Below, one piece after another: positions 42,581 through 51,102 of a stretch of DNA of 64,000 nt (position 1 is the first letter of the stretch; each line of letters opens with the position of its first letter). Below the pieces are notes generated by a model. It saw only the letters and a program-made list of their open reading frames with translations. It was not told where the DNA came from and made no database searches. This stretch comes from Thermoleophilum album (GTDB lineage: Bacteria; Actinomycetota; Thermoleophilia; Solirubrobacterales; Thermoleophilaceae). The position numbers were made by a program, and so were the translations under genes. The stretch spans positions 1,612,001-1,676,000 of the forward strand of contig NZ_CP066171.1 in assembly GCF_028867705.1 (NCBI RefSeq), read 5' to 3'.

Positions 42581-42731
42581 ACATCTGCCGTCAGTTTACG
42601 GGATTCGTACGGCGCGAACGCCGCCCGCACCGCCCGGCACGCGTCGCCGCGCCGGTTGGCGTCCGAGCGGTCGCCGGCGTCCCGCGCGAACAGTCCAGCA
42701 CAGCGAAGCGAGCGAGAAACCAGGAGGAAAC

Positions 42732-43499
42732 TTGGCCGCGCAACAGGTGCAAAAGCTCGGCATCGTCGGGAGCGGAACCATCGGCGCCGGATTGGCACGA
42801 GCGGCGGCGGACGCCGGCATCGAGGTGCTGGTGTGGGCGCGCTCGCCCGAGCGGGCGCGCGAGCGACTCAAGCGCGACCTGCCGGTGACGAGCGAGCTCG
42901 CCGACCTCGCTGGCTGCGACCTGGTCGTGGAATCGGTAGCCGAGGAACTGGCCGTAAAGAGGGAGCTGCTCGGGCGCCTCGACGCGACGCTGCCCGGGGA
43001 CACCCCCATCGCCAGCACGACCTCTTCGCTGTCGGTGGCCGAGCTCGCCACCGCCAGCGGCCGGCCGGAAAGGTTCGGCGCCCTCCACGTCTTCAATCCG
43101 GTAGAGAAGATGAAGCTCGTCGAGCTCGCGTTTCCTGCCGAGGCGAGCGAGGAGACGCGGGCGCTGCTCAAGGGTGTGTGCGATCAGCTCGGGAAGGTCG
43201 CGGTTGAGGTGCCCGACGTGCCCGGGTTCGTCGTCAACCGCCTGCTCTTCCCGTACCTCTTCGACGCCGTCCGCCTGCTCGAAGAGACCGGCCTCGACCC
43301 GAAGTCGATCGACACCTGCATGAAGCTCGGCGCCGGCCACCCGATGGGGCCGCTGGCGCTCCTCGACTTCGTCGGGCTCGACGTTTCGGCTGCGATCGGC
43401 GAATCGATCGGGGTCGAGATTCCGCAGCGGGTGCGCGACCTGATCGCCCAGGGTCGCCTCGGGCGCAAGACCAAGGCCGGTTTCTACGAGTACGAGTGA
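42732..43499 (+). CDS. 3-hydroxyacyl-CoA (3-hydroxybutyryl-CoA) dehydrogenase
   Basis: NAD-dependent dehydrogenase of 255 aa, without a fused hydratase. The Rossmann motif is GIVGSGTIGAGLARAAAD, the catalytic His is in ALHVFNPVEKMKLVE, and the C-terminal helical domain has VPGFVVNRLLFPYLFDAV and HPMGPLALLDFVGLD. The TTG start at 42732 is favoured by CAGGAGG 4-5 bases before it; a GTG at 42747 is the alternative. It is divergent from the thiolase gene. The fused dehydrogenase/hydratase FadB is not found in the window. Confidence 0.95.
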   Translation: MAAQQVQKLGIVGSGTIGAGLARAAADAGIEVLVWARSPERARERLKRDLPVTSELADLAGCDLVVESVAEELAVKRELLGRLDATLPGDTPIASTTSSLSVAELATASGRPERFGALHVFNPVEKMKLVELAFPAEASEETRALLKGVCDQLGKVAVEVPDVPGFVVNRLLFPYLFDAVRLLEETGLDPKSIDTCMKLGAGHPMGPLALLDFVGLDVSAAIGESIGVEIPQRVRDLIAQGRLGRKTKAGFYEYE

Positions 43500-43540
43500 G
43501 CGACACGCGCACGGCGTGGACGGCTCCGACTAGACAGAGC

Positions 43541-43569
43541 GCTGGGGGCCGGCGGAGCCGGCCCCCAGC
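43541..43569. terminator. Bidirectional hairpin terminator between convergent genes
   Basis: GCTGGGGGCCGGC (43541-43553) pairs perfectly over 13 bp with 43557-43569 around a GGA loop. TTGGTT follows on the plus strand. It separates the 3-hydroxyacyl-CoA dehydrogenase gene from the convergent NirK-like gene. Confidence 0.85.
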
Positions 43570-43603
43570 TTGGTTCGGGGTGGATCGGAGGTCGACCGGG
43601 GCG

Positions 43604-45019
43604 CTAGCGCACCACTTCGATCGTCGTCCTCTGTCCGGCCAGATAGTGGCCGGGGACGAGACACCAGAGCACGTAGCGACCCGGTCGCAGGGTGACCGTC
43701 ACCCGCTCCGTGGCGCAGGACCCCAGCATCCTGCCGCGCGCCAGGGCGGCAGCGGGCGACGGCTCGGCCCCCTTCATCGGAAGAGGGGCACGGCCGACAG
43801 CGAAGCGATGCATCGCTTGCCCGGCGTTGCGGACCACGAAGGTCACGCGGCCGGCCTTCACCGTATGGGCTGCCGGGCGCACGTACATCTCGCCGAGTTC
43901 GACCGCAACCTTGCCGCGGCCGAGCGCGCTCGACCGGGCTGCTCGCGAGCTGGCGCGCTCACCGTGTGAGCGGACGCTCGTCTCCGCTGCGCCGGCGGTC
44001 TGCAGGACGCCGACAGCACCCCGCGCCGCGTCAGCGAACGAGTGGTCGACGAACGGGTAGGCACCTTCCTCGTCGAGCGTGAACTCCACGTACCCGCCTT
44101 GCGAGGGCGCGAGGTTGATGGTCTGGCTCGAGCGGAAAACGGTGTTCTCGACGACCGCGCGATCGAACACCGTCCCGATCACGTGGAACGCGCTCCAGCG
44201 GTTCGGACCCCCGTTGAGAACCCACATCCGGATCCGCTCGCCGCGCCGAACGGTGATCGGCGCCTGCTTGTACTGGTTGGCGTAACCGTTGAAGGCGACG
44301 ACGTCGGGATTACGGGCGCCCATCTGCGCGAGATCGCCAGGGGCGCCCGGCTTGCCGAGGTAGTGCTCCTGCTGCGTCACCCACAGCTCGCGGTCGACCG
44401 GGGCCAGACCACGCGGCCTCACCACCATCATGCCCGCCATCCCGTTGCCCACGTGCCAGAGAACGGGCTGGGTGGCACAGTGATACATGAACACACCGGG
44501 GTGCTTGGCAGTGAACGCGATGACCTTTGTCTTGCCCGGCGCGACGTCGACGTAGTGACGACTCGGCGCCACCTCGGCCGAGTGGCAGTCGATCGAGTGC
44601 GGCATCGTCACGTGCATGGTGCGACCGCCGCCGTTCGTGAACTCGATCCGCACGCGATCGCCCTGGTTGACGACGATCGGTGGCGATGCCCCCGTCCCCG
44701 GATAGCTACGACCGTTGACCGTGTAACTCCACACCTCGGTCGGGGGCAGGTTCGGCGCCACCTTCACGACGTGCTGGGTGACGCCGACGCGAAACACCTT
44801 CACGGCACCGGGCGGGACGGACGGCAACGTTGGGTCTACGCGCTTGAAGCTCTCGTAGCGGATGTGTGCTTGCGCTCCTCGAGTCGCGCGCGCCGCTCGC
44901 GTCTGAGACGGTGCCGATGCGATCGCGGCGTCGCGACGCTCGCTGCTTTTCGCGATCGCGAAGAGCGCGATGATCAGGCTCAGGAGAGCCGCGAAGGCCG
45001 CCAAGCCACCCAAGATCAA
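43604..45019 (-). CDS. NirK-like multicopper protein with an extra C-terminal cupredoxin domain
   Basis: Predicted membrane-anchored, outward-facing copper protein. Residues 1-24 are a hydrophobic anchor. Cupredoxin 1 (about 75-205) has HSIDCHSAE and MYHCATQPVLWHVGNGMAG, matching type 1 ligands (His, Cys, His, Met) and two type 2 ligands plus the catalytic Asp of nitrite reductase. Cupredoxin 2 has FHVIGTVFDR and FVDHSF, which supplies the third type 2 His, but the catalytic His of classic NirK seems replaced by Val. A third cupredoxin (about 375-471) has MHRF and LWCLVPGHYLAGQ, so its axial Met looks like Gln. The TTG at 45019 is uncertain: the frame is open upstream and reads plausibly. Confidence 0.82.
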   Translation of the reverse strand: MILGGLAAFAALLSLIIALFAIAKSSERRDAAIASAPSQTRAARATRGAQAHIRYESFKRVDPTLPSVPPGAVKVFRVGVTQHVVKVAPNLPPTEVWSYTVNGRSYPGTGASPPIVVNQGDRVRIEFTNGGGRTMHVTMPHSIDCHSAEVAPSRHYVDVAPGKTKVIAFTAKHPGVFMYHCATQPVLWHVGNGMAGMMVVRPRGLAPVDRELWVTQQEHYLGKPGAPGDLAQMGARNPDVVAFNGYANQYKQAPITVRRGERIRMWVLNGGPNRWSAFHVIGTVFDRAVVENTVFRSSQTINLAPSQGGYVEFTLDEEGAYPFVDHSFADAARGAVGVLQTAGAAETSVRSHGERASSRAARSSALGRGKVAVELGEMYVRPAAHTVKAGRVTFVVRNAGQAMHRFAVGRAPLPMKGAEPSPAAALARGRMLGSCATERVTVTLRPGRYVLWCLVPGHYLAGQRTTIEVVR

Positions 45020-45147
45020 GGCGACCGTGGTTCGCGTCCACGTCCCAGTGCCGGCTCCTTCAGCAGCGGACTTGGCGTCCGCACCGTTTGGCTGCCGACA
45101 CCGCTCTGTTCGCTGGACGGTCTCGGAGGTGACAACGTGCTGGGCAC
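45016..45147 (-). CDS. Possible 43-residue leader ORF overlapping the NirK-like start
   Basis: GTG at 45147 follows a strong AAAGGAGG on the minus strand and opens a 43-codon Pro/Ser-rich frame. Its TGA overlaps the TTG start of the NirK-like gene (TTGA). The peptide itself looks unlike a folded protein. It may be a coupling leader. Alternatively, it marks a frameshift that separates the true start from the copper protein's own frame. Confidence 0.35.
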   Translation of the reverse strand: MPSTLSPPRPSSEQSGVGSQTVRTPSPLLKEPALGRGREPRSP

Positions 45148-45196
45148 CTCGACCCCTCCTTTCGGAAGACGTGCGGCCTTGTGCTTCAGGATCTGA

Positions 45197-45622
45197 CCCG
45201 CACGCGGTGCAACGGGGGCGGCGGCGCTCGAGCGGTTACTCGAAGCTGCTCGCACCGAGATCCACCCGCTCCGTCTTGCAGCGAGCCACAGCGCTCGCGA
45301 AGCGTTCGTAGACGACTTTCTGGCGCGGCTGCACGACGAGGGGGGACCGCTCGTCGAGCTCTTCGTTGCGAACAGTCAAATCGTGCGGCGCCTCGGAGCC
45401 GACGGGAGTGCCGATATCGGTGTCGCGGCGCGGCGCCCCGGCGCCACCCCCAACCCTTCCGTCGAAGAACGCGAGATCTGTCCCGACGAGCTTGTGTGTG
45501 CGGTGGCGCGCGCTCATCCGTGGGCCCTGCGGGGCACGATCGCTCTCGCCGAGCGCATAGCTGCAGCAGCGGCTCGAGCGCAAGCGGTCGGAACGGATGT
45601 CGACACGCCGCCTGCGACTTGA
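45197..45622 (+). pseudogene. LysR-type regulator remnant (ligand-binding domain only)
   Basis: The frame from 45197 to the TGA at 45620-45622 encodes a recognisable LysR effector-binding segment: LRLAASHSAREAFVDDFLA, VELFVANSQIVRRLGADG, ADIGVAARRPGATPNPS and CPDELVCAVARAHPWALRG. The helix-turn-helix half and the last third are missing. A stop codon at 45194 closes the frame upstream, and no start codon with a ribosome site precedes the homology. It lies divergent to the NirK-like gene, where an intact LysR regulator would be expected. I infer a decayed or truncated gene. Confidence 0.75.
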
Positions 45623-45697
45623 CCACGACTCGCCTTGCCCCCGGCCGGTGCAGCGCACGGCACCGCGGGCCCGGCACGACCGCGACCTTCTAGTTCG

Positions 45698-47176
45698 TCA
45701 ACCCGACCGCTGGTTGGGGTCGGCCGCCGCCTGTTCGACCGGCCGGCCTTCGCCGGGAGGCGGCGGCTCTGAAGAAGTCGTACGCCCGCTGTCGGCACGG
45801 TCGTCTTTCTGACCGTTGCGGCCGGGCTTGCGGCCGTCTTTCTGGCTCTCTGACGCTGGCTCTGGCTCGCCGCGGTGGTCGCGGATGCGGACCGCTTCGA
45901 CACGGTTCTCGCGCACCGACTCGACGCGCAGCGAAAACCCGTCGATGCGCACCAGGTCGCCCCGCTTCGGCAAACGACCGAGCTGACCGAAGACGTAGCC
46001 GCCGATCGAGTTGTAATCGCCCGGCTCGATCGCGAGATCGATGCCGTAGTCGCGCAGATCCGAGATCGGAACGTGCCCACGCACCCACCAGTCGCCGTTG
46101 CGCAAGCGGCGCACGCCGGTGACGACCGGATCGGTCTCGTCGGCGATCTCGCCGACGATCTCCTCGAGGATGTCCTCGACCGTAACGATCCCGACCGTCC
46201 GCCCGTACTCGTCGATCACGACCGCGAGCGACGCACGCTCGCCCTGAAGGTCGGCGAGCAGGTCGTCGAGCGGCTTCGTCTCGGGCACGATCAAAACGTC
46301 CTTGACGGCGTCGTCGATCGGTGCGTCAAACCCGTGCGTGAGCACGCGTCGCGCCAGCGAGTTGACGTGCACGACCCCGCGCACCTTGTCGGTCGAGCCC
46401 TGCTCGGTGACGACGAGGCGGGTGTGTCCCGAGTCGACACAGCGCTGCAGTGCAACACCCGCGCTTTCCGAGATGTCGCACGTGACGACAGCGGGGATCG
46501 GCGTCATCACGTGGTGCGCCTGCTGCTCGTGGAGGTGGAAGACGCCCGACAGCATCCCCGCCTCGCCCGGGTCGAGCTTCGCCGCGCGCAGTCCGCGCGC
46601 CACCAGGTACTTGAGCTCTTCGGCGGTTACGTCCTCCTCGAACTCCTTACGCGGATCGACACGCAGCAAGCGTAAAACGGAGTTGGTGGCACCATTGAGA
46701 ACGCGGACCGCAGGCCCGAAGATGGTGTTGAACCAGCCGAGCGGGCGCGCAAGCAACACCACCGAGCGCTCGGCGTGAACAACCGCGAACAGCTTCGGCA
46801 CCTGCTCGCCGAGCACGATATGCAGCGCGGTCACTACTACGTAGGCAAGCGTCACCGATAAACCCAGAGCGACAGCGTCGCCCAGCGTTCCGGTGAGCAG
46901 CGGCTCGACCAGCTTCGCCACCGCTGGCTCGCCAAGGAAACCGATGCCGATCGCGGTCATCGTGTTGCCGAGCTGGCAGGCCGCGAGGTACTGGTCGATG
47001 CGCTCGAGCTGGCGGAGCGCGACGCGAGCGCCGCCGCTGCCCTGCTTGGCGAGCTCCTCCAGGCGGCTTTGGCGCGCGCGCACGAGCGCGAACTCGGCAG
47101 CGACAAAAAAGCCGTTGAGAGCGATCAGGGCAAGTACGGCGAGAATCAGCAGCAGCGGCGTCAAGTCGCTGGCCAC
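45698..47176 (-). CDS. CNNM/CorC (hemolysin C-like) membrane protein with CBS domains
   Basis: A 492-residue protein. Residues 1-150 form the DUF21/CNNM membrane domain (LNGFFVAAEFALVRARQSRL, LGNTMTAIGIGFLGEP, VLGEQVPKLFAV). A tandem CBS pair follows (HVMTPIPAVV to YGRTVGIVTVEDILEEIVGE), then a CorC/HlyC domain (WWVRGHVPISDL, DYNSIGGYVFGQLGRLPKRG). The last 60 residues are charged and disordered. Relatives are linked to magnesium or sodium/magnesium transport; hemolysin is a historical name. It lies alone between the LysR remnant and the GGDEF gene, and nothing suggests an operon partner. Confidence 0.92.
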   Translation of the reverse strand: MASDLTPLLLILAVLALIALNGFFVAAEFALVRARQSRLEELAKQGSGGARVALRQLERIDQYLAACQLGNTMTAIGIGFLGEPAVAKLVEPLLTGTLGDAVALGLSVTLAYVVVTALHIVLGEQVPKLFAVVHAERSVVLLARPLGWFNTIFGPAVRVLNGATNSVLRLLRVDPRKEFEEDVTAEELKYLVARGLRAAKLDPGEAGMLSGVFHLHEQQAHHVMTPIPAVVTCDISESAGVALQRCVDSGHTRLVVTEQGSTDKVRGVVHVNSLARRVLTHGFDAPIDDAVKDVLIVPETKPLDDLLADLQGERASLAVVIDEYGRTVGIVTVEDILEEIVGEIADETDPVVTGVRRLRNGDWWVRGHVPISDLRDYGIDLAIEPGDYNSIGGYVFGQLGRLPKRGDLVRIDGFSLRVESVRENRVEAVRIRDHRGEPEPASESQKDGRKPGRNGQKDDRADSGRTTSSEPPPPGEGRPVEQAAADPNQRSG

Positions 47177-47271: not shown

Positions 47272-49560
47272 TCAGCTCGAGACGTTGGCGAACGGCGCTC
47301 CGGGGATCGACAGGGCAGCGTCGACAAGGTCGGGATCGAACTGCCGCCCACGCTCGCGGTCGAGCTCCTCCGCTACCTGCGCCGGTGTCAAGGCGCGCCG
47401 GTAGGGGCGATCGAGGGACATCGCCGCGATCGCCTCGGCGAGGTGGAGCAAACGCGCCGCGAGCGGGATGCTGTCGGCGCGCAAACCGTCGGGATAGCCG
47501 CAGCCGTCGAAGCGCTCGTGGTGCGAGCGCACGATCCGCGCCAGCTCGATCGCGCCGAGACCGCGCAAAAGCGCCTCCCCCGCCAGCGTGTGAACGCGCA
47601 CGAGCTCGTAGCCGCTGCGGTCGAGCGGCCGCTGCGAGCGCAGCATCTCCGGTGGCCATGCGAGCTTGCCGAGCGCCTGAACGCGGGCCGCGCGCTCGGC
47701 GAGGAGCGTCGTGTGCGCGTCGAGCTCGGCCTGGCGAGCGATTTCTCGCACCAGCCGCAGCGTCAACCGTGTGTGCGTCTCGCTCGCAGGGTCGCGCCGG
47801 TGGAGCGCCGCGACGAGAGCGGCAAGCTGGGGCCCCAACGCCTCCTCCACTGTGCGCTTGCTTCCCTGGGGTTGTGCTAGCCGGAGCCGATCGGCAGGCG
47901 CGTGCGGTCGTCGCGACGGGATCGCCGTCGCCTCCGCCTCGTCGCGATCCCCCGCCGCGCGCTGCTTGTCGCTCCCGCCGGCGCTCTTGTCGCTTGCGCC
48001 ACCCTCAATCACCGCCAGGCGGTGGCGCTCGGGCGCTCCCCGCGGACCCGACTGTGCCGCACCTCTCGCGCCGGCGCCGCTCCCAGGCCGATCGGCAAGC
48101 ACGGCGCGGTCCTTGCCCGCGCGTTTGGCCTTGTAGAGAGCCCCATCCGCCGCGGCGATCAGCTCGTCGCGGCTCGTGCCATGCACGCCCGCCTCGGCGA
48201 CACCCACGCTGATCGTCAGCTTCACGGGAGCGGCGATCGCTCGCACGCGCTCGCATAGGCGTGTCGCAGCACGCAGCGCGCTCGCTGCTTCGGTCGCCGG
48301 CATCACCACGGCGAACTCCTCGCCGCCGATGCGGAACGCTTCGTCGTCGCCGCGCGTACCGCTGCGCAGCGCATCGGCAACGGCACGCAAGGCGTCGTCG
48401 CCAACCGGATGCCCGTAACGATCGTTGATCTGCTTGAAGTCGTCGATGTCGAGGAGCGCGAGCGACAGCGGTGCCGAGCCGTGGGCGAGAAGTTCCTCGA
48501 GTCGCTCGTGGAAAGCGCGGTGGGCCGGCAGCCCGGTGAGCGAGTCGAGCCGCGCCTGTTCCTTCGTGTGTTCCCAGAGCAGCGCCCGGCGCAGCGCCAG
48601 CGCGCCGACGTCGGCGGCGTTGCGGACGACAAGATCGAGCTCCGATCCAGGCTCGGGCGCTGGCGAGGGGGCGACCGCGCCGAGCAGCTGGTCGCCGTCA
48701 CGCAGCTCGAGCAGGGCGACGTCCGCGGCGAGCGACGCCGCCGCGTCGCGCACCGGCAGCTGCTGCGGTATGCGCCCCGCCTCAGAGACGCGCGCGTCGA
48801 CGAGCTCCAGCAGCGCCCCGCGAGCGATGTAAACACCGCACGCCGACGCCCGCAGGCCGTCGCTGGCAGCGCGTGCCAGACATCTGGCGACCGCCTCGGG
48901 GTCGATCGCCGCGCTCAGCTCCACGGTCAGTTCGTGCAAGCGGCGCAGGCGCCGCAGCTGCGTTTCACGGGCTTGCCGCAACTGTTCGTTCTCGACGGCG
49001 GTGGCGATGCGGTAGGCGACCGCACGCAGCTCCGCCTCGTCGGCGCGCGAAAAGGGCTCGTCGGCGCGGCGGCCTACAACAATCACCCCGACCTCGCGGC
49101 TACCGACGAGCCGTGTCCAGGCGACGTGCGCGAGGCCGTAGCCGGCGAGCCAGCTCGGTAGCAGCATGTCGCCCATCGACACGAGCACCGCGTCGCGCGA
49201 CAGCGCGGCACGTAGCTCGTCGCCGAGCGGCACCGGCCGCTCCGGCGAGGCGTGGGCGGCGAGACCCCAGCGAGAGGCGATCGCGAGGTCGTCGTCGGGC
49301 CCGACCAGCACCACGCATATGTCGGCTGAAAAGAGCGACGCGATGTCGGTCGCGGCGAGCTCGAGCGGCGCGCCGCGGCCGGGATCGGAACGGCCGAGCA
49401 GCGACACGACCTGAGCCAGCCGTGTCGCCCGCATCAACGCCTGGCTCGCGCGGCGTTCGACGTCGGCAAGGCGGGTGCGCAAACGCTCGTTCTCCTCGCG
49501 CAGCCGCAGAAGAGCCTGCTCCCACCCATCCTCCGAGCTGCGAAGGGGGGCCTGGTGCAT
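47272..49560 (-). CDS. GAF-GGDEF protein with a degenerate HD-GYP domain
   Basis: A 762-residue cytoplasmic signalling protein. It has an N-terminal coiled coil, one or two GAF-like sensor domains (about 60-330), a GGDEF domain with an intact GGEEF at residues 412-416 (LTGLPAHRAFHERLEELL before it), a 90-residue Ala/Arg-rich linker, and a C-terminal HD-GYP-like domain. The last keeps VHTLAGEALL and HHERFDGCGYPDGLR, but the HD pair is replaced by QALGK near residue 626 and a later AD by AEAIAAM. It probably makes cyclic-di-GMP but is unlikely to degrade it. The FIST gene ends 13 bases upstream. Confidence 0.9.
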   Translation of the reverse strand: MHQAPLRSSEDGWEQALLRLREENERLRTRLADVERRASQALMRATRLAQVVSLLGRSDPGRGAPLELAATDIASLFSADICVVLVGPDDDLAIASRWGLAAHASPERPVPLGDELRAALSRDAVLVSMGDMLLPSWLAGYGLAHVAWTRLVGSREVGVIVVGRRADEPFSRADEAELRAVAYRIATAVENEQLRQARETQLRRLRRLHELTVELSAAIDPEAVARCLARAASDGLRASACGVYIARGALLELVDARVSEAGRIPQQLPVRDAAASLAADVALLELRDGDQLLGAVAPSPAPEPGSELDLVVRNAADVGALALRRALLWEHTKEQARLDSLTGLPAHRAFHERLEELLAHGSAPLSLALLDIDDFKQINDRYGHPVGDDALRAVADALRSGTRGDDEAFRIGGEEFAVVMPATEAASALRAATRLCERVRAIAAPVKLTISVGVAEAGVHGTSRDELIAAADGALYKAKRAGKDRAVLADRPGSGAGARGAAQSGPRGAPERHRLAVIEGGASDKSAGGSDKQRAAGDRDEAEATAIPSRRPHAPADRLRLAQPQGSKRTVEEALGPQLAALVAALHRRDPASETHTRLTLRLVREIARQAELDAHTTLLAERAARVQALGKLAWPPEMLRSQRPLDRSGYELVRVHTLAGEALLRGLGAIELARIVRSHHERFDGCGYPDGLRADSIPLAARLLHLAEAIAAMSLDRPYRRALTPAQVAEELDRERGRQFDPDLVDAALSIPGAPFANVSS

Positions 49561-49573
49561 CTCGCCGCCCCTC

Positions 49574-50863
49574 TCAAGCGGACAGCGCGAGCACCGCGAC
49601 GCTCGCGTTGTGGAAGCCCGTGCTGCCGGTTACCCGCCCGAACTCGCCGTAGGTGAAGAACCCGCAGAGCCGGCTCGTACCGCAGGCGCTCGCTATCCGC
49701 CGCGGCTCCTCGACTACGGCGTGCCCGAGGATCGGCTTGCGCGCTGCACACGAGAAAGCAAGCACGGTCGCGGCTGGCCCGGCGAGCTCGCCACGCGCTT
49801 GACGCGCCGCCTCCTCGGCGCCCTCCAGCAACTCCTCCGCGCTCGCCTCCATCACCTGCACCACCGTGTTCTCGGGGACATAGGCGAACATCGCCAACCC
49901 GCCATCGGTGGCGTCCAGCACGTGCCGCACGTCGTAGCGCCCGCGGGCGTTCGGTATTCCGAGCGGGTGGTCCATCGCGAACGTCGCGAACGGCTGAGCG
50001 TCAGGGAGCGGGCGGTCGCGCGCCTCGAGGTAGGCGTCTCGTGCCGGTCTGCCCTCGAGTTCGACGATCACGTTCCCCGCGGCACGCGTGACGAGCATCG
50101 GGGCGCTCGCCGGGCGCCAACCGTGGGCGACACCGACGCCGATCGGGTCGCTCGACTCGATCCAGAGCGCGACCACGCTGTTGGTGCTGGCGCCATCGGC
50201 GTACTGCCACGTGCGGGTGATGCGCAGGTCGTCTCCCGCCGCTCCGCCGACGATCGGCACCGCGGCGCCCGTCACCTCGTAGGCACCGCGAACGATCTCG
50301 CGCTGGTCGCCGGCGAGACCGTCGCTGAGCAGCACGAGCGCGGCGTGTCGGCCCTTGCCTTCGGCGGTCGCCTGCGCCCGCGCCTGCTCGGCGGCAGCGC
50401 GTGCCGCACCGGCCAGCTCGCAGCCGAGATCGCAGCGAGCGATCCCGAGACGGAGACGTCGCGACGAGAGATGCACGGCGCAGCACCCCGTCGCGATGGT
50501 GGCCGCGGCAGTGAAGGCACCGTCGCTCGAGCAAGCCACAAGGCGCGCCGGCGACACCGCGTCGGCAGCACGCTCGAACGCGCCCACAGGGTCTTGGAAG
50601 CCTGCGCTGAAGAGCACCACCGCATCACCCGCTTGCAGGTCGCGCCCGGCCAGCGCTCGCTCCACCGCTTCTTGAGCGGCACGGAGAGGATCGTCCGCCT
50701 CCGAGATTCCGACGCCGCTTGCGCTGCGGTGCGCCGACAGCTGCGCGAGGTCTGCTCCCTCGCCCCCACCGCTACATCGATCGCGACGATCGGAGCGTGG
50801 CACCGCACGCGCACGGTGGTCGAGCGCAGAGCCGGGGCCCTCGTAGCGGGAAGGTTCGGTCAT
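49574..50863 (-). CDS. FIST-domain sensory protein
   Basis: A 429-residue soluble sensor with FIST_N (VVLFSAGFQDPVGAFERAAD, VACSSDGAFTAAATIATGC, VLLSDGLAGDQREIVRGAYE) and FIST_C (RGRYDVRHVLDATDGGLAMF, ETTVQ-like PENTVVQVMEAS, CGFFTYGEFG near the end). FIST domains are proposed to sense small molecules such as amino acids. The ATG at 50863 (MTEPSRYEG) is the most likely start. The GGDEF gene begins 13 bases after its stop, which strongly suggests that FIST input controls the cyclase. Confidence 0.88.
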   Translation of the reverse strand: MTEPSRYEGPGSALDHRARAVPRSDRRDRCSGGGEGADLAQLSAHRSASGVGISEADDPLRAAQEAVERALAGRDLQAGDAVVLFSAGFQDPVGAFERAADAVSPARLVACSSDGAFTAAATIATGCCAVHLSSRRLRLGIARCDLGCELAGAARAAAEQARAQATAEGKGRHAALVLLSDGLAGDQREIVRGAYEVTGAAVPIVGGAAGDDLRITRTWQYADGASTNSVVALWIESSDPIGVGVAHGWRPASAPMLVTRAAGNVIVELEGRPARDAYLEARDRPLPDAQPFATFAMDHPLGIPNARGRYDVRHVLDATDGGLAMFAYVPENTVVQVMEASAEELLEGAEEAARQARGELAGPAATVLAFSCAARKPILGHAVVEEPRRIASACGTSRLCGFFTYGEFGRVTGSTGFHNASVAVLALSA

Positions 50864-51102
50864 GACGGCATCCGGGCGGCCGCGGGCCGTCGCCTCGGTC
50901 GTGCGAGGACGGCCGCTACGGCCGGCCTTGCCGCTTATCGTCGACCGGGCAAAAGAGCGCTTTAGAGCGGCACGCCGATACCGACAAAGCTCCGAGCCGC
51001 GGCGACCGAAAACATCGGCCACCGGTCACTTCGGCGACTGGCCGCCGCGGCGACACCACCCGCGCGCCACCGCTCTACCGGCCGCTAGCGCGCCTGACCG
51101 CT

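What the first reader, a model, noticed from the sequence alone, without database searches (positions are those of the whole stretch)
43604..45019. NirK-like copper protein with a third cupredoxin and an altered catalytic site
The sequence shows nitrite-reductase-like ligands for type 1 and type 2 copper (HSIDCHSAE, MYHCATQPVLWH, FVDHSF) with the catalytic Asp kept. The segment that in classic NirK reads HLIGGHG here reads FHVIGTVFD, so the catalytic His seems to be missing. A C-terminal cupredoxin is fused, with LWCLVPGHYLAGQ, where the axial Met appears to be Gln. This suggests a changed activity (another oxyanion, O2 or NO) with a built-in electron-transfer domain of low potential.
Basis: partly seen in the sequence, partly recalled or inferred. 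Interest (0 to 1): 0.72.

Follow-up and report, generated by a model that had tools for sequence, protein, structure and literature searches.

The report
Three-domain copper nitrite reductase, intact catalytic site
This gene encodes an ordinary-looking copper nitrite reductase whose supposedly missing catalytic histidine is in fact present, and what sets it apart is a membrane anchor at one end and an extra electron-carrying copper domain with an unusual glutamine ligand at the other.

Summary
The ORF is real and NirK-like, but the catalytic site is not altered. The catalytic His is the first His of HLIGGHG (clade-I motif TRPHL; clade-II motif SSFHV/I/P). Here it is His279 in SAFHVIG, it is invariant in 40 of 40 relatives, and it aligns with His244 of Geobacillus NirK. 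A published analysis says the His that regulates the primary proton channel is absent from Geobacillus and three-domain NirKs; that it is this same residue is my identification. Asp144, all T1/T2 ligands and Ile281 are kept. A changed substrate is therefore unsupported.

The C-terminal cupredoxin is real: auracyanin-like, C-x4-H-x4-Gln, with Gln463 aligned to auracyanin B's axial Met. Gln is kept in 8 of 10 Solirubrobacterales homologues and is Met in two. The core-plus-C-terminal-cupredoxin layout is known from Thermus TsNirK, which has Gln in the core T1 and Met in the third domain, the reverse of this case.

Best reading: a membrane-anchored clade-II NirK with a fused T1 relay. The gene is sporadic (absent at this site in a congener), has no recognisable NOR, NarG or NosZ partners, lies beside a truncated LysR remnant, and its 5' end is unresolved. 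New variant of a known kind.

The parts
43604..45019 (-).
44951..45019 (-). N-terminal hydrophobic helix, probable signal anchor; conserved xAAEG cytoplasmic motif lies just upstream at about 45056-45067
   Evidence: sequence; N-termini of relatives
45145..45162 (-). Strong Shine-Dalgarno (AAAGGAGG, 45155-45162) and GTG (45145-45147), one base out of frame with nirK: true start unresolved (real indel, assembly error, or other start)
43985..44812 (-). Two-domain NirK core (residues about 70-345)
44582..44599 (-). Sensing loop H141-S-I-D144-C145-H146: T1 His, AspCAT, T2 His; Cys145 is Phe (37) or Leu (2) in the 39 other rows
44438..44482 (-). H180 (T2), C181 (T1), H189 (T1), M194 (T1 axial Met)
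44177..44185 (-). His279 = HisCAT (His255 AfNiR, His244 in the Geobacillus chain), Ile281 = IleCAT; reader thought the His absent
44120..44125 (-). Gln299-Thr300, equivalent of Gln239-Thr240 in TsNirK and Glu279-Thr280 in AfNiR
44042..44044 (-). His326, third T2 Cu ligand (His306 equivalent)
43607..43924 (-). C-terminal auracyanin-like cupredoxin (residues about 366-471)
43808..43810 (-). His404, T1C ligand
43631..43663 (-). C453-LVPG-H458-YLAG-Q463: T1C Cys, His and axial Gln
43541..43569 (.). Perfect 29-bp palindrome between convergent nirK and 3-hydroxyacyl-CoA dehydrogenase: probable bidirectional terminator
   Evidence: sequence; reverse-strand self-match
45215..45538 (+). Truncated remnant of a divergent LysR-family-like regulator (matches residues about 80-189 of the G298 homologue; N-terminal part missing)

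Best explanation
A membrane-anchored, clade-II copper nitrite reductase with a complete catalytic site and a fused C-terminal type-1 copper relay. Shown by sequence: seven core Cu ligands, AspCAT (D144), HisCAT (H279), IleCAT (I281), and a third T1 site with His404/Cys453/His458/Gln463. Inferred by homology: the core trimerises; nitrite binds at T2 between subunits; Asp144 and His279 supply protons; electrons pass T1 to T2 through the Cys181-His180 bridge, making NO. Inferred, not shown: an electron donor docks at the C-terminal T1, whose Gln ligand lowers its potential so that transfer to the Met-ligated core T1 is near-isoenergetic or downhill (T1C to T1N to T2, as proposed for TsNirK). The genome has no recognisable NOR, NarG or NosZ, so the likely roles are nitrite removal, an auxiliary electron sink or NO production rather than full denitrification (inference).
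For: phmmer and Foldseek put Geobacillus, AniA and TsNirK NirKs on top; AF2 model pLDDT 92.3. Catalytic and ligand residues invariant in 40 relatives except the T1 axial position, 37 Met/3 Gln. Literature placement of HisCAT in TRPHL/SSFHV. Residue-level alignment with the Geobacillus chain: H279 to H244, D144 to D98. Core dN/dS 0.09 against HR41 and no excess of changes in the window lineage (11 against 10) imply a retained function. C-domain: auracyanin top by sequence and fold; Gln at auracyanin's axial Met. TsNirK precedent for C-terminal T1 relay. Gln effect on potential. NOR, NarG, NosZ not found.
Against: No biochemistry. No coordinates were available to measure the T1C-T1N distance, and trimer and domain packing were not modelled; the linker has pLDDT below 50, so the third domain may be mobile. 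HdNir's extra T1 domain is too far to relay electrons. NCBIfam TIGR02376 matches at 139 bits, below its 296-bit curated cut-off. The 5' end lacks an in-frame canonical start before the helix and the neighbouring regulator is truncated, so the gene may not be expressed normally in this genome.
Confidence: 0.72

Rival explanations
1. Changed enzyme: a NirK-derived protein that lost its catalytic His and acts on another oxyanion, O2 or NO.
For: Motif differs from classic HLIGGHG (sequence).
Against: The catalytic His is the first His of that motif and is present; AspCAT and IleCAT kept; same motif in Geobacillus NirK. No HxH pairs of a trinuclear oxidase site are visible in the alignment.
Confidence: 0.04
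2. The third cupredoxin is not an electron relay but a docking, copper-storage or structural appendage, as the extra domain of Hyphomicrobium HdNir is electron-incompetent; donors feed T1N directly.
For: HdNir precedent; linker of pLDDT below 50; 7 of 17 members of the same clade lack the domain; it was lost twice or gained more than once.
Against: T1 ligands His, Cys, His invariant in 10/10 C-domains; TsNirK precedent for T1C to T1N within about 14 A.
Confidence: 0.3
3. In this genome nirK is a decaying gene: the 5' end and divergent regulator were damaged by a deletion, and the congener lacks it.
For: LysR-like gene reduced to a remnant here but of near full length beside nirK in L005, L008, L009, L010, L158; no in-frame canonical start upstream of the helix, strong SD+GTG out of frame; locus absent in same-genus G115; Cys145 unique.
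Against: All ligands intact; core dN/dS 0.09; substitutions not accelerated in the window lineage. An assembly indel would explain the start equally well.
Confidence: 0.25

Closest known systems
Thermus scotoductus TsNirK (PDB 6HBE; PMC6400189)
   Same: NirK core plus C-terminal cupredoxin with its own T1 Cu; top Foldseek hit; HisCAT conserved.
   Different: TsNirK has SerCAT instead of Asp, Gln in the core T1 and Met in an amicyanin-like third domain (Cys428, His431, Met434); the window has AspCAT, Met in the core and Gln in an auracyanin-like C-x4-H-x4-Q loop, plus an N-terminal membrane helix.
Geobacillus NirK (GtNir/GkNir, 3wi9, 3x1e) and Neisseria AniA (clade II)
   Same: Best sequence matches; Geobacillus NirK has the same FHVxG motif around HisCAT and no second His.
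   Different: No third cupredoxin; IleCAT is Val in GtNir/GkNir, Ile here.
Actinobacterial NirK with N-terminal membrane and cupredoxin domains (PMC4770552)
   Same: Homologous core, about 40-45% identity.
   Different: Their extra cupredoxin is N-terminal; here it is C-terminal and the N-terminus is a single helix.
Auracyanins A and B (Chloroflexus, Roseiflexus; 1qhq, 2aan, 6kol)
   Same: Closest solved fold and sequence of the C-terminal domain; auracyanin B has identical loop spacing.
   Different: Axial Met in auracyanin B at the aligned position; free-standing.
Nitrosopumilus maritimus multicopper oxidase with C-terminal cupredoxin (9CCK)
   Same: NirK/MCO-type core with C-terminal cupredoxin.
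   Different: Only 21% identity; site details not examined here.

Membership tests
Copper nitrite reductase NirK, clade II | T1 ligands His2-Cys-Met in domain I | tested here: met
   H141, C181, H189, M194; His and Cys 40/40, Met 37/40
Copper nitrite reductase NirK, clade II | T2 ligands three His (100, 135, 306) | tested here: met
   H146, H180, H326, 40/40
Copper nitrite reductase NirK, clade II | AspCAT and HisCAT in the clade-II SSFHV/I/P-type motif | tested here: met
   D144, H279 in SAFHVIG
Copper nitrite reductase NirK, clade II | Homotrimer and nitrite-to-NO activity | not testable with these tools
   needs protein
NCBIfam equivalog TIGR02376 (Cu_nitrite_red) | Score above curated cut-off 296.3 | tested here: not met
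   139.2 bits, E 1.8e-40; so not filed as this equivalog; whether other clade-II NirKs pass was not tested
TsNirK subgroup (C-terminal T1Cu NirK) | C-terminal cupredoxin with T1 ligands | tested here: met
TsNirK subgroup (C-terminal T1Cu NirK) | SerCAT in sensing loop and Gln in core T1 | tested here: not met
   Asp144 and Met194 here; so same layout, not the same subgroup
Two-domain laccase / multicopper oxidase | Trinuclear cluster His pairs (HxH motifs) | tested here: not met
   HC without HCH, and DH without HxH, at the equivalent places; this is a sequence reading, no MCO profile was aligned for it
Stellacyanin-type (Gln-ligated) cupredoxin | Gln at the axial Met position with Cys-x4-His-x4-Gln spacing | tested here: met
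   alignment to auracyanin B; 8/10 fused homologues Gln; coordination itself not tested

The most novel reading that the evidence does not exclude
A lineage-specific three-copper NirK of Solirubrobacterales in which a Gln-ligated auracyanin-like domain acts as a dedicated lower-potential entry relay to a Met-ligated core (the mirror image of TsNirK), with the axial ligand tuned during evolution by ligand change or by swapping the whole third domain.
Probability: 0.35. Interest if true: 0.45.

Novelty: new variant of a known kind. Interest (0 to 1): 0.28.

Why it matters
It corrects a mistaken claim of an altered active site. It adds a natural case in which Gln and Met are exchanged between the two T1 sites relative to TsNirK, with Gln- and Met-type third domains on otherwise related cores. 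That makes the question of how axial-ligand tuning sets the direction of electron flow in fused NirKs testable with natural homologues.

Tried and rejected
Missing catalytic His: rejected by motif literature, alignment and conservation. Multicopper-oxidase reading: no HxH pairs seen. NOR, NarG, NosZ in the own genome: not found (two COX1 hits, both with a CoxB-like gene upstream and read as cytochrome oxidases by context; NarG and NosZ models below cut-off). Met axial ligand elsewhere in the C-domain: Met403 directly precedes His404 and is replaced in the two Met-type domains, so it is an unlikely ligand. C-domain swap in L089/L090: suggested (52% identity to a free cupredoxin against about 33-38% to most fused sisters) but AU p=0.36, so not shown. 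C-domain and the extra 6-residue loop before the T1 His: the loop also occurs in members without the C-domain, so the two are not linked. A family scan of the LysR remnant failed because the coordinates given held a stop, and a Pfam scan of the G298 regulator used a wrong end and returned nothing (protein 6), so 'LysR-family' rests on my reading of its sequence. No paper describing Solirubrobacterales three-domain NirK was found in the open-access library, which does not prove none exists.

Full report
CHECK OF THE OBSERVATION. The ORF at 43604-45019 on the minus strand is real (471 aa; the frame is open to 45235). It belongs to the copper nitrite reductase superfamily: the best solved relatives are Geobacillus NirK (3x1e, E 1.3e-47) and AniA. 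The C-terminus carries an additional cupredoxin that is absent from those structures.

THE CATALYTIC HISTIDINE. The catalytic residue is the first: a survey of NirK puts the active-site His in TRPHL (clade I) or SSFHV/I/P (clade II) (PMC4770552), and in TsNirK HisCAT is His216 with ValCAT two residues on at 218 (PMC6400189), which matches His255/Ile257 of HLI in the classic enzyme (my knowledge of AfNiR numbering). The window reads SAFHVIGTVFD. His279 aligns with His244 and Asp144 with Asp98 of the Geobacillus chain, counted from the phmmer alignment, where the matched Geobacillus segment itself reads SSFHVVGTVFD. In a 40-sequence alignment His279, Asp144, the three T2 His, and the T1 Cys and two His are invariant; T1 Met194 is Met in 37 and Gln in 3; no sequence has a His at the second position. 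The TsNirK paper notes that a His regulating the primary proton channel in classic two-domain NirKs is not found in TsNirK, GtNir or three-domain NirKs; I identify this with the second His, which the paper does not spell out. Ile281 (IleCAT) and Gln299-Thr300 (equivalents of TsNirK Gln239-Thr240) are also kept. The altered-site claim and the changed activity inferred from it fall.

THE THIRD CUPREDOXIN. Residues about 366-471 form a confidently predicted cupredoxin (pLDDT 89 alone). By sequence and by fold it is nearest to auracyanins. Its ligands are His404, Cys453, His458 and Gln463; the loop CLVPGHYLAGQ aligns with CTFPGHYLAGM of auracyanin B, so Gln sits at the axial Met position. Gln is present in 8 of 10 fused homologues and Met in two (L009/L089, L010/L090). 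Free-standing relatives of the domain in the class mostly have Met, with several separate Gln cases. Gln for Met lowers potential in rusticyanin (667 to 563 mV, PMC11881046). A lower T1C potential is therefore a reasonable inference, not a measurement.

RELATIVES AND EVOLUTION. A scan of 85,000 species genomes and of 399 genomes of the class found the fused form only in Solirubrobacterales/Thermoleophilaceae-type genomes among the loci I read. A core tree puts 17 rows in one clade (100/100), 10 with the C-domain; the fewest changes are three, compatible with one gain and two losses. The Met-type pair nests among Gln-type cores. Its C-domain is closer to a free Met cupredoxin (52%) than to its fused sisters, but a single clade of fused domains is not rejected (AU p 0.36). 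The closest homologue is from Bacterium HR41 (88.7%). Against it the core has dS 0.70, while flanking genes have 0.06-0.11 and the C-domain 0.16, and the mismatch profile rises sharply over 44741-43930. This is best explained by homologous replacement of the core in one of the two lineages. Core dN/dS is 0.09 and substitutions are not concentrated in the window lineage.

SURROUNDINGS. nirK is a single gene between a CNNM/CorC-type gene (45698-47176, -) and a 3-hydroxyacyl-CoA dehydrogenase (42654-43499, +). In the same-genus genome G115 these two are adjacent and the 2.2 kb between 43503 and 45697 is missing. In five relatives a divergently placed regulator that I read as LysR-family lies next to nirK at near full length; in the window only a piece survives (45215-45538). 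Upstream of TTG 45019 the frame carries the conserved xAAEG motif but no canonical start; a strong Shine-Dalgarno with GTG at 45147 is one base out of frame. TTG 45019 would also leave the helix without its N-terminal positive charge. A real indel and an assembly error cannot be told apart here. The genome (2.11 Mb, one contig) shows two haem-copper oxidases that I read as cytochrome oxidases from their context, and no NarG or NosZ above cut-off.

MECHANISM. Most likely a membrane-anchored clade-II NirK reducing nitrite to NO at a normal T2 site, fed through a fused C-terminal T1 relay (T1C to T1N to T2), as proposed for TsNirK. The presence of sites is shown by sequence; catalysis, trimerisation, relay and potential are inferred. 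The chief rivals are a non-relay appendage and a gene decaying in this genome.

COMPARISON. TsNirK shares the layout but has SerCAT, Gln in the core T1 and Met in an amicyanin-like third domain: the reverse arrangement. The window is therefore not a member of the TsNirK subgroup as defined by those features. It does not reach the TIGR02376 equivalog cut-off, so I file it as a clade-II NirK on ligands and catalytic residues, and as a new variant of a known kind.

Noticed in passing
window 45215-45538 (+); full-length counterparts in L005, L008, L009, L010, L158: Truncated remnant of a divergent LysR-family-like regulator that lies at near full length beside three-domain nirK in five relatives.
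   Followed up: yes
window 43503-45697; L157 (G115): The nirK segment is absent at the syntenic site in a same-genus genome, whose flanking genes are separated by about 70-85 bp.
   Followed up: yes
window 44741-43930 against L004: nirK core is far more diverged from HR41 (dS 0.70) than flanking genes (0.06-0.11) or the C-domain (0.16): a mosaic pointing to homologous replacement of the core.
   Followed up: partly
L009/L089 and L010/L090, C-termini: Third cupredoxin with Met instead of Gln, closer to a free cupredoxin than to sister fusions; possible domain swap (AU p 0.36, not shown).
   Followed up: partly
L015, L098, L020: Actinobacterial NirK-like proteins with Gln at the core T1 axial position, as in TsNirK.
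   Followed up: no
L117, L129, L130, L136, L141: Further cupredoxin domains of the class with Gln at the axial position, apparently arisen more than once.
   Followed up: partly
window 44585-44587: Cys145 in the sensing loop HSIDCH; other rows have Phe or Leu. Effect unknown.
   Followed up: no
window 47272-49560 and 49574-51022 (-): GAF-GGDEF-HD protein next to a FIST-domain protein: a likely sensory pair, unrelated to nirK.
   Followed up: no
window 43541-43569: Perfect 29-bp palindrome between convergent genes, probable bidirectional terminator.
   Followed up: no
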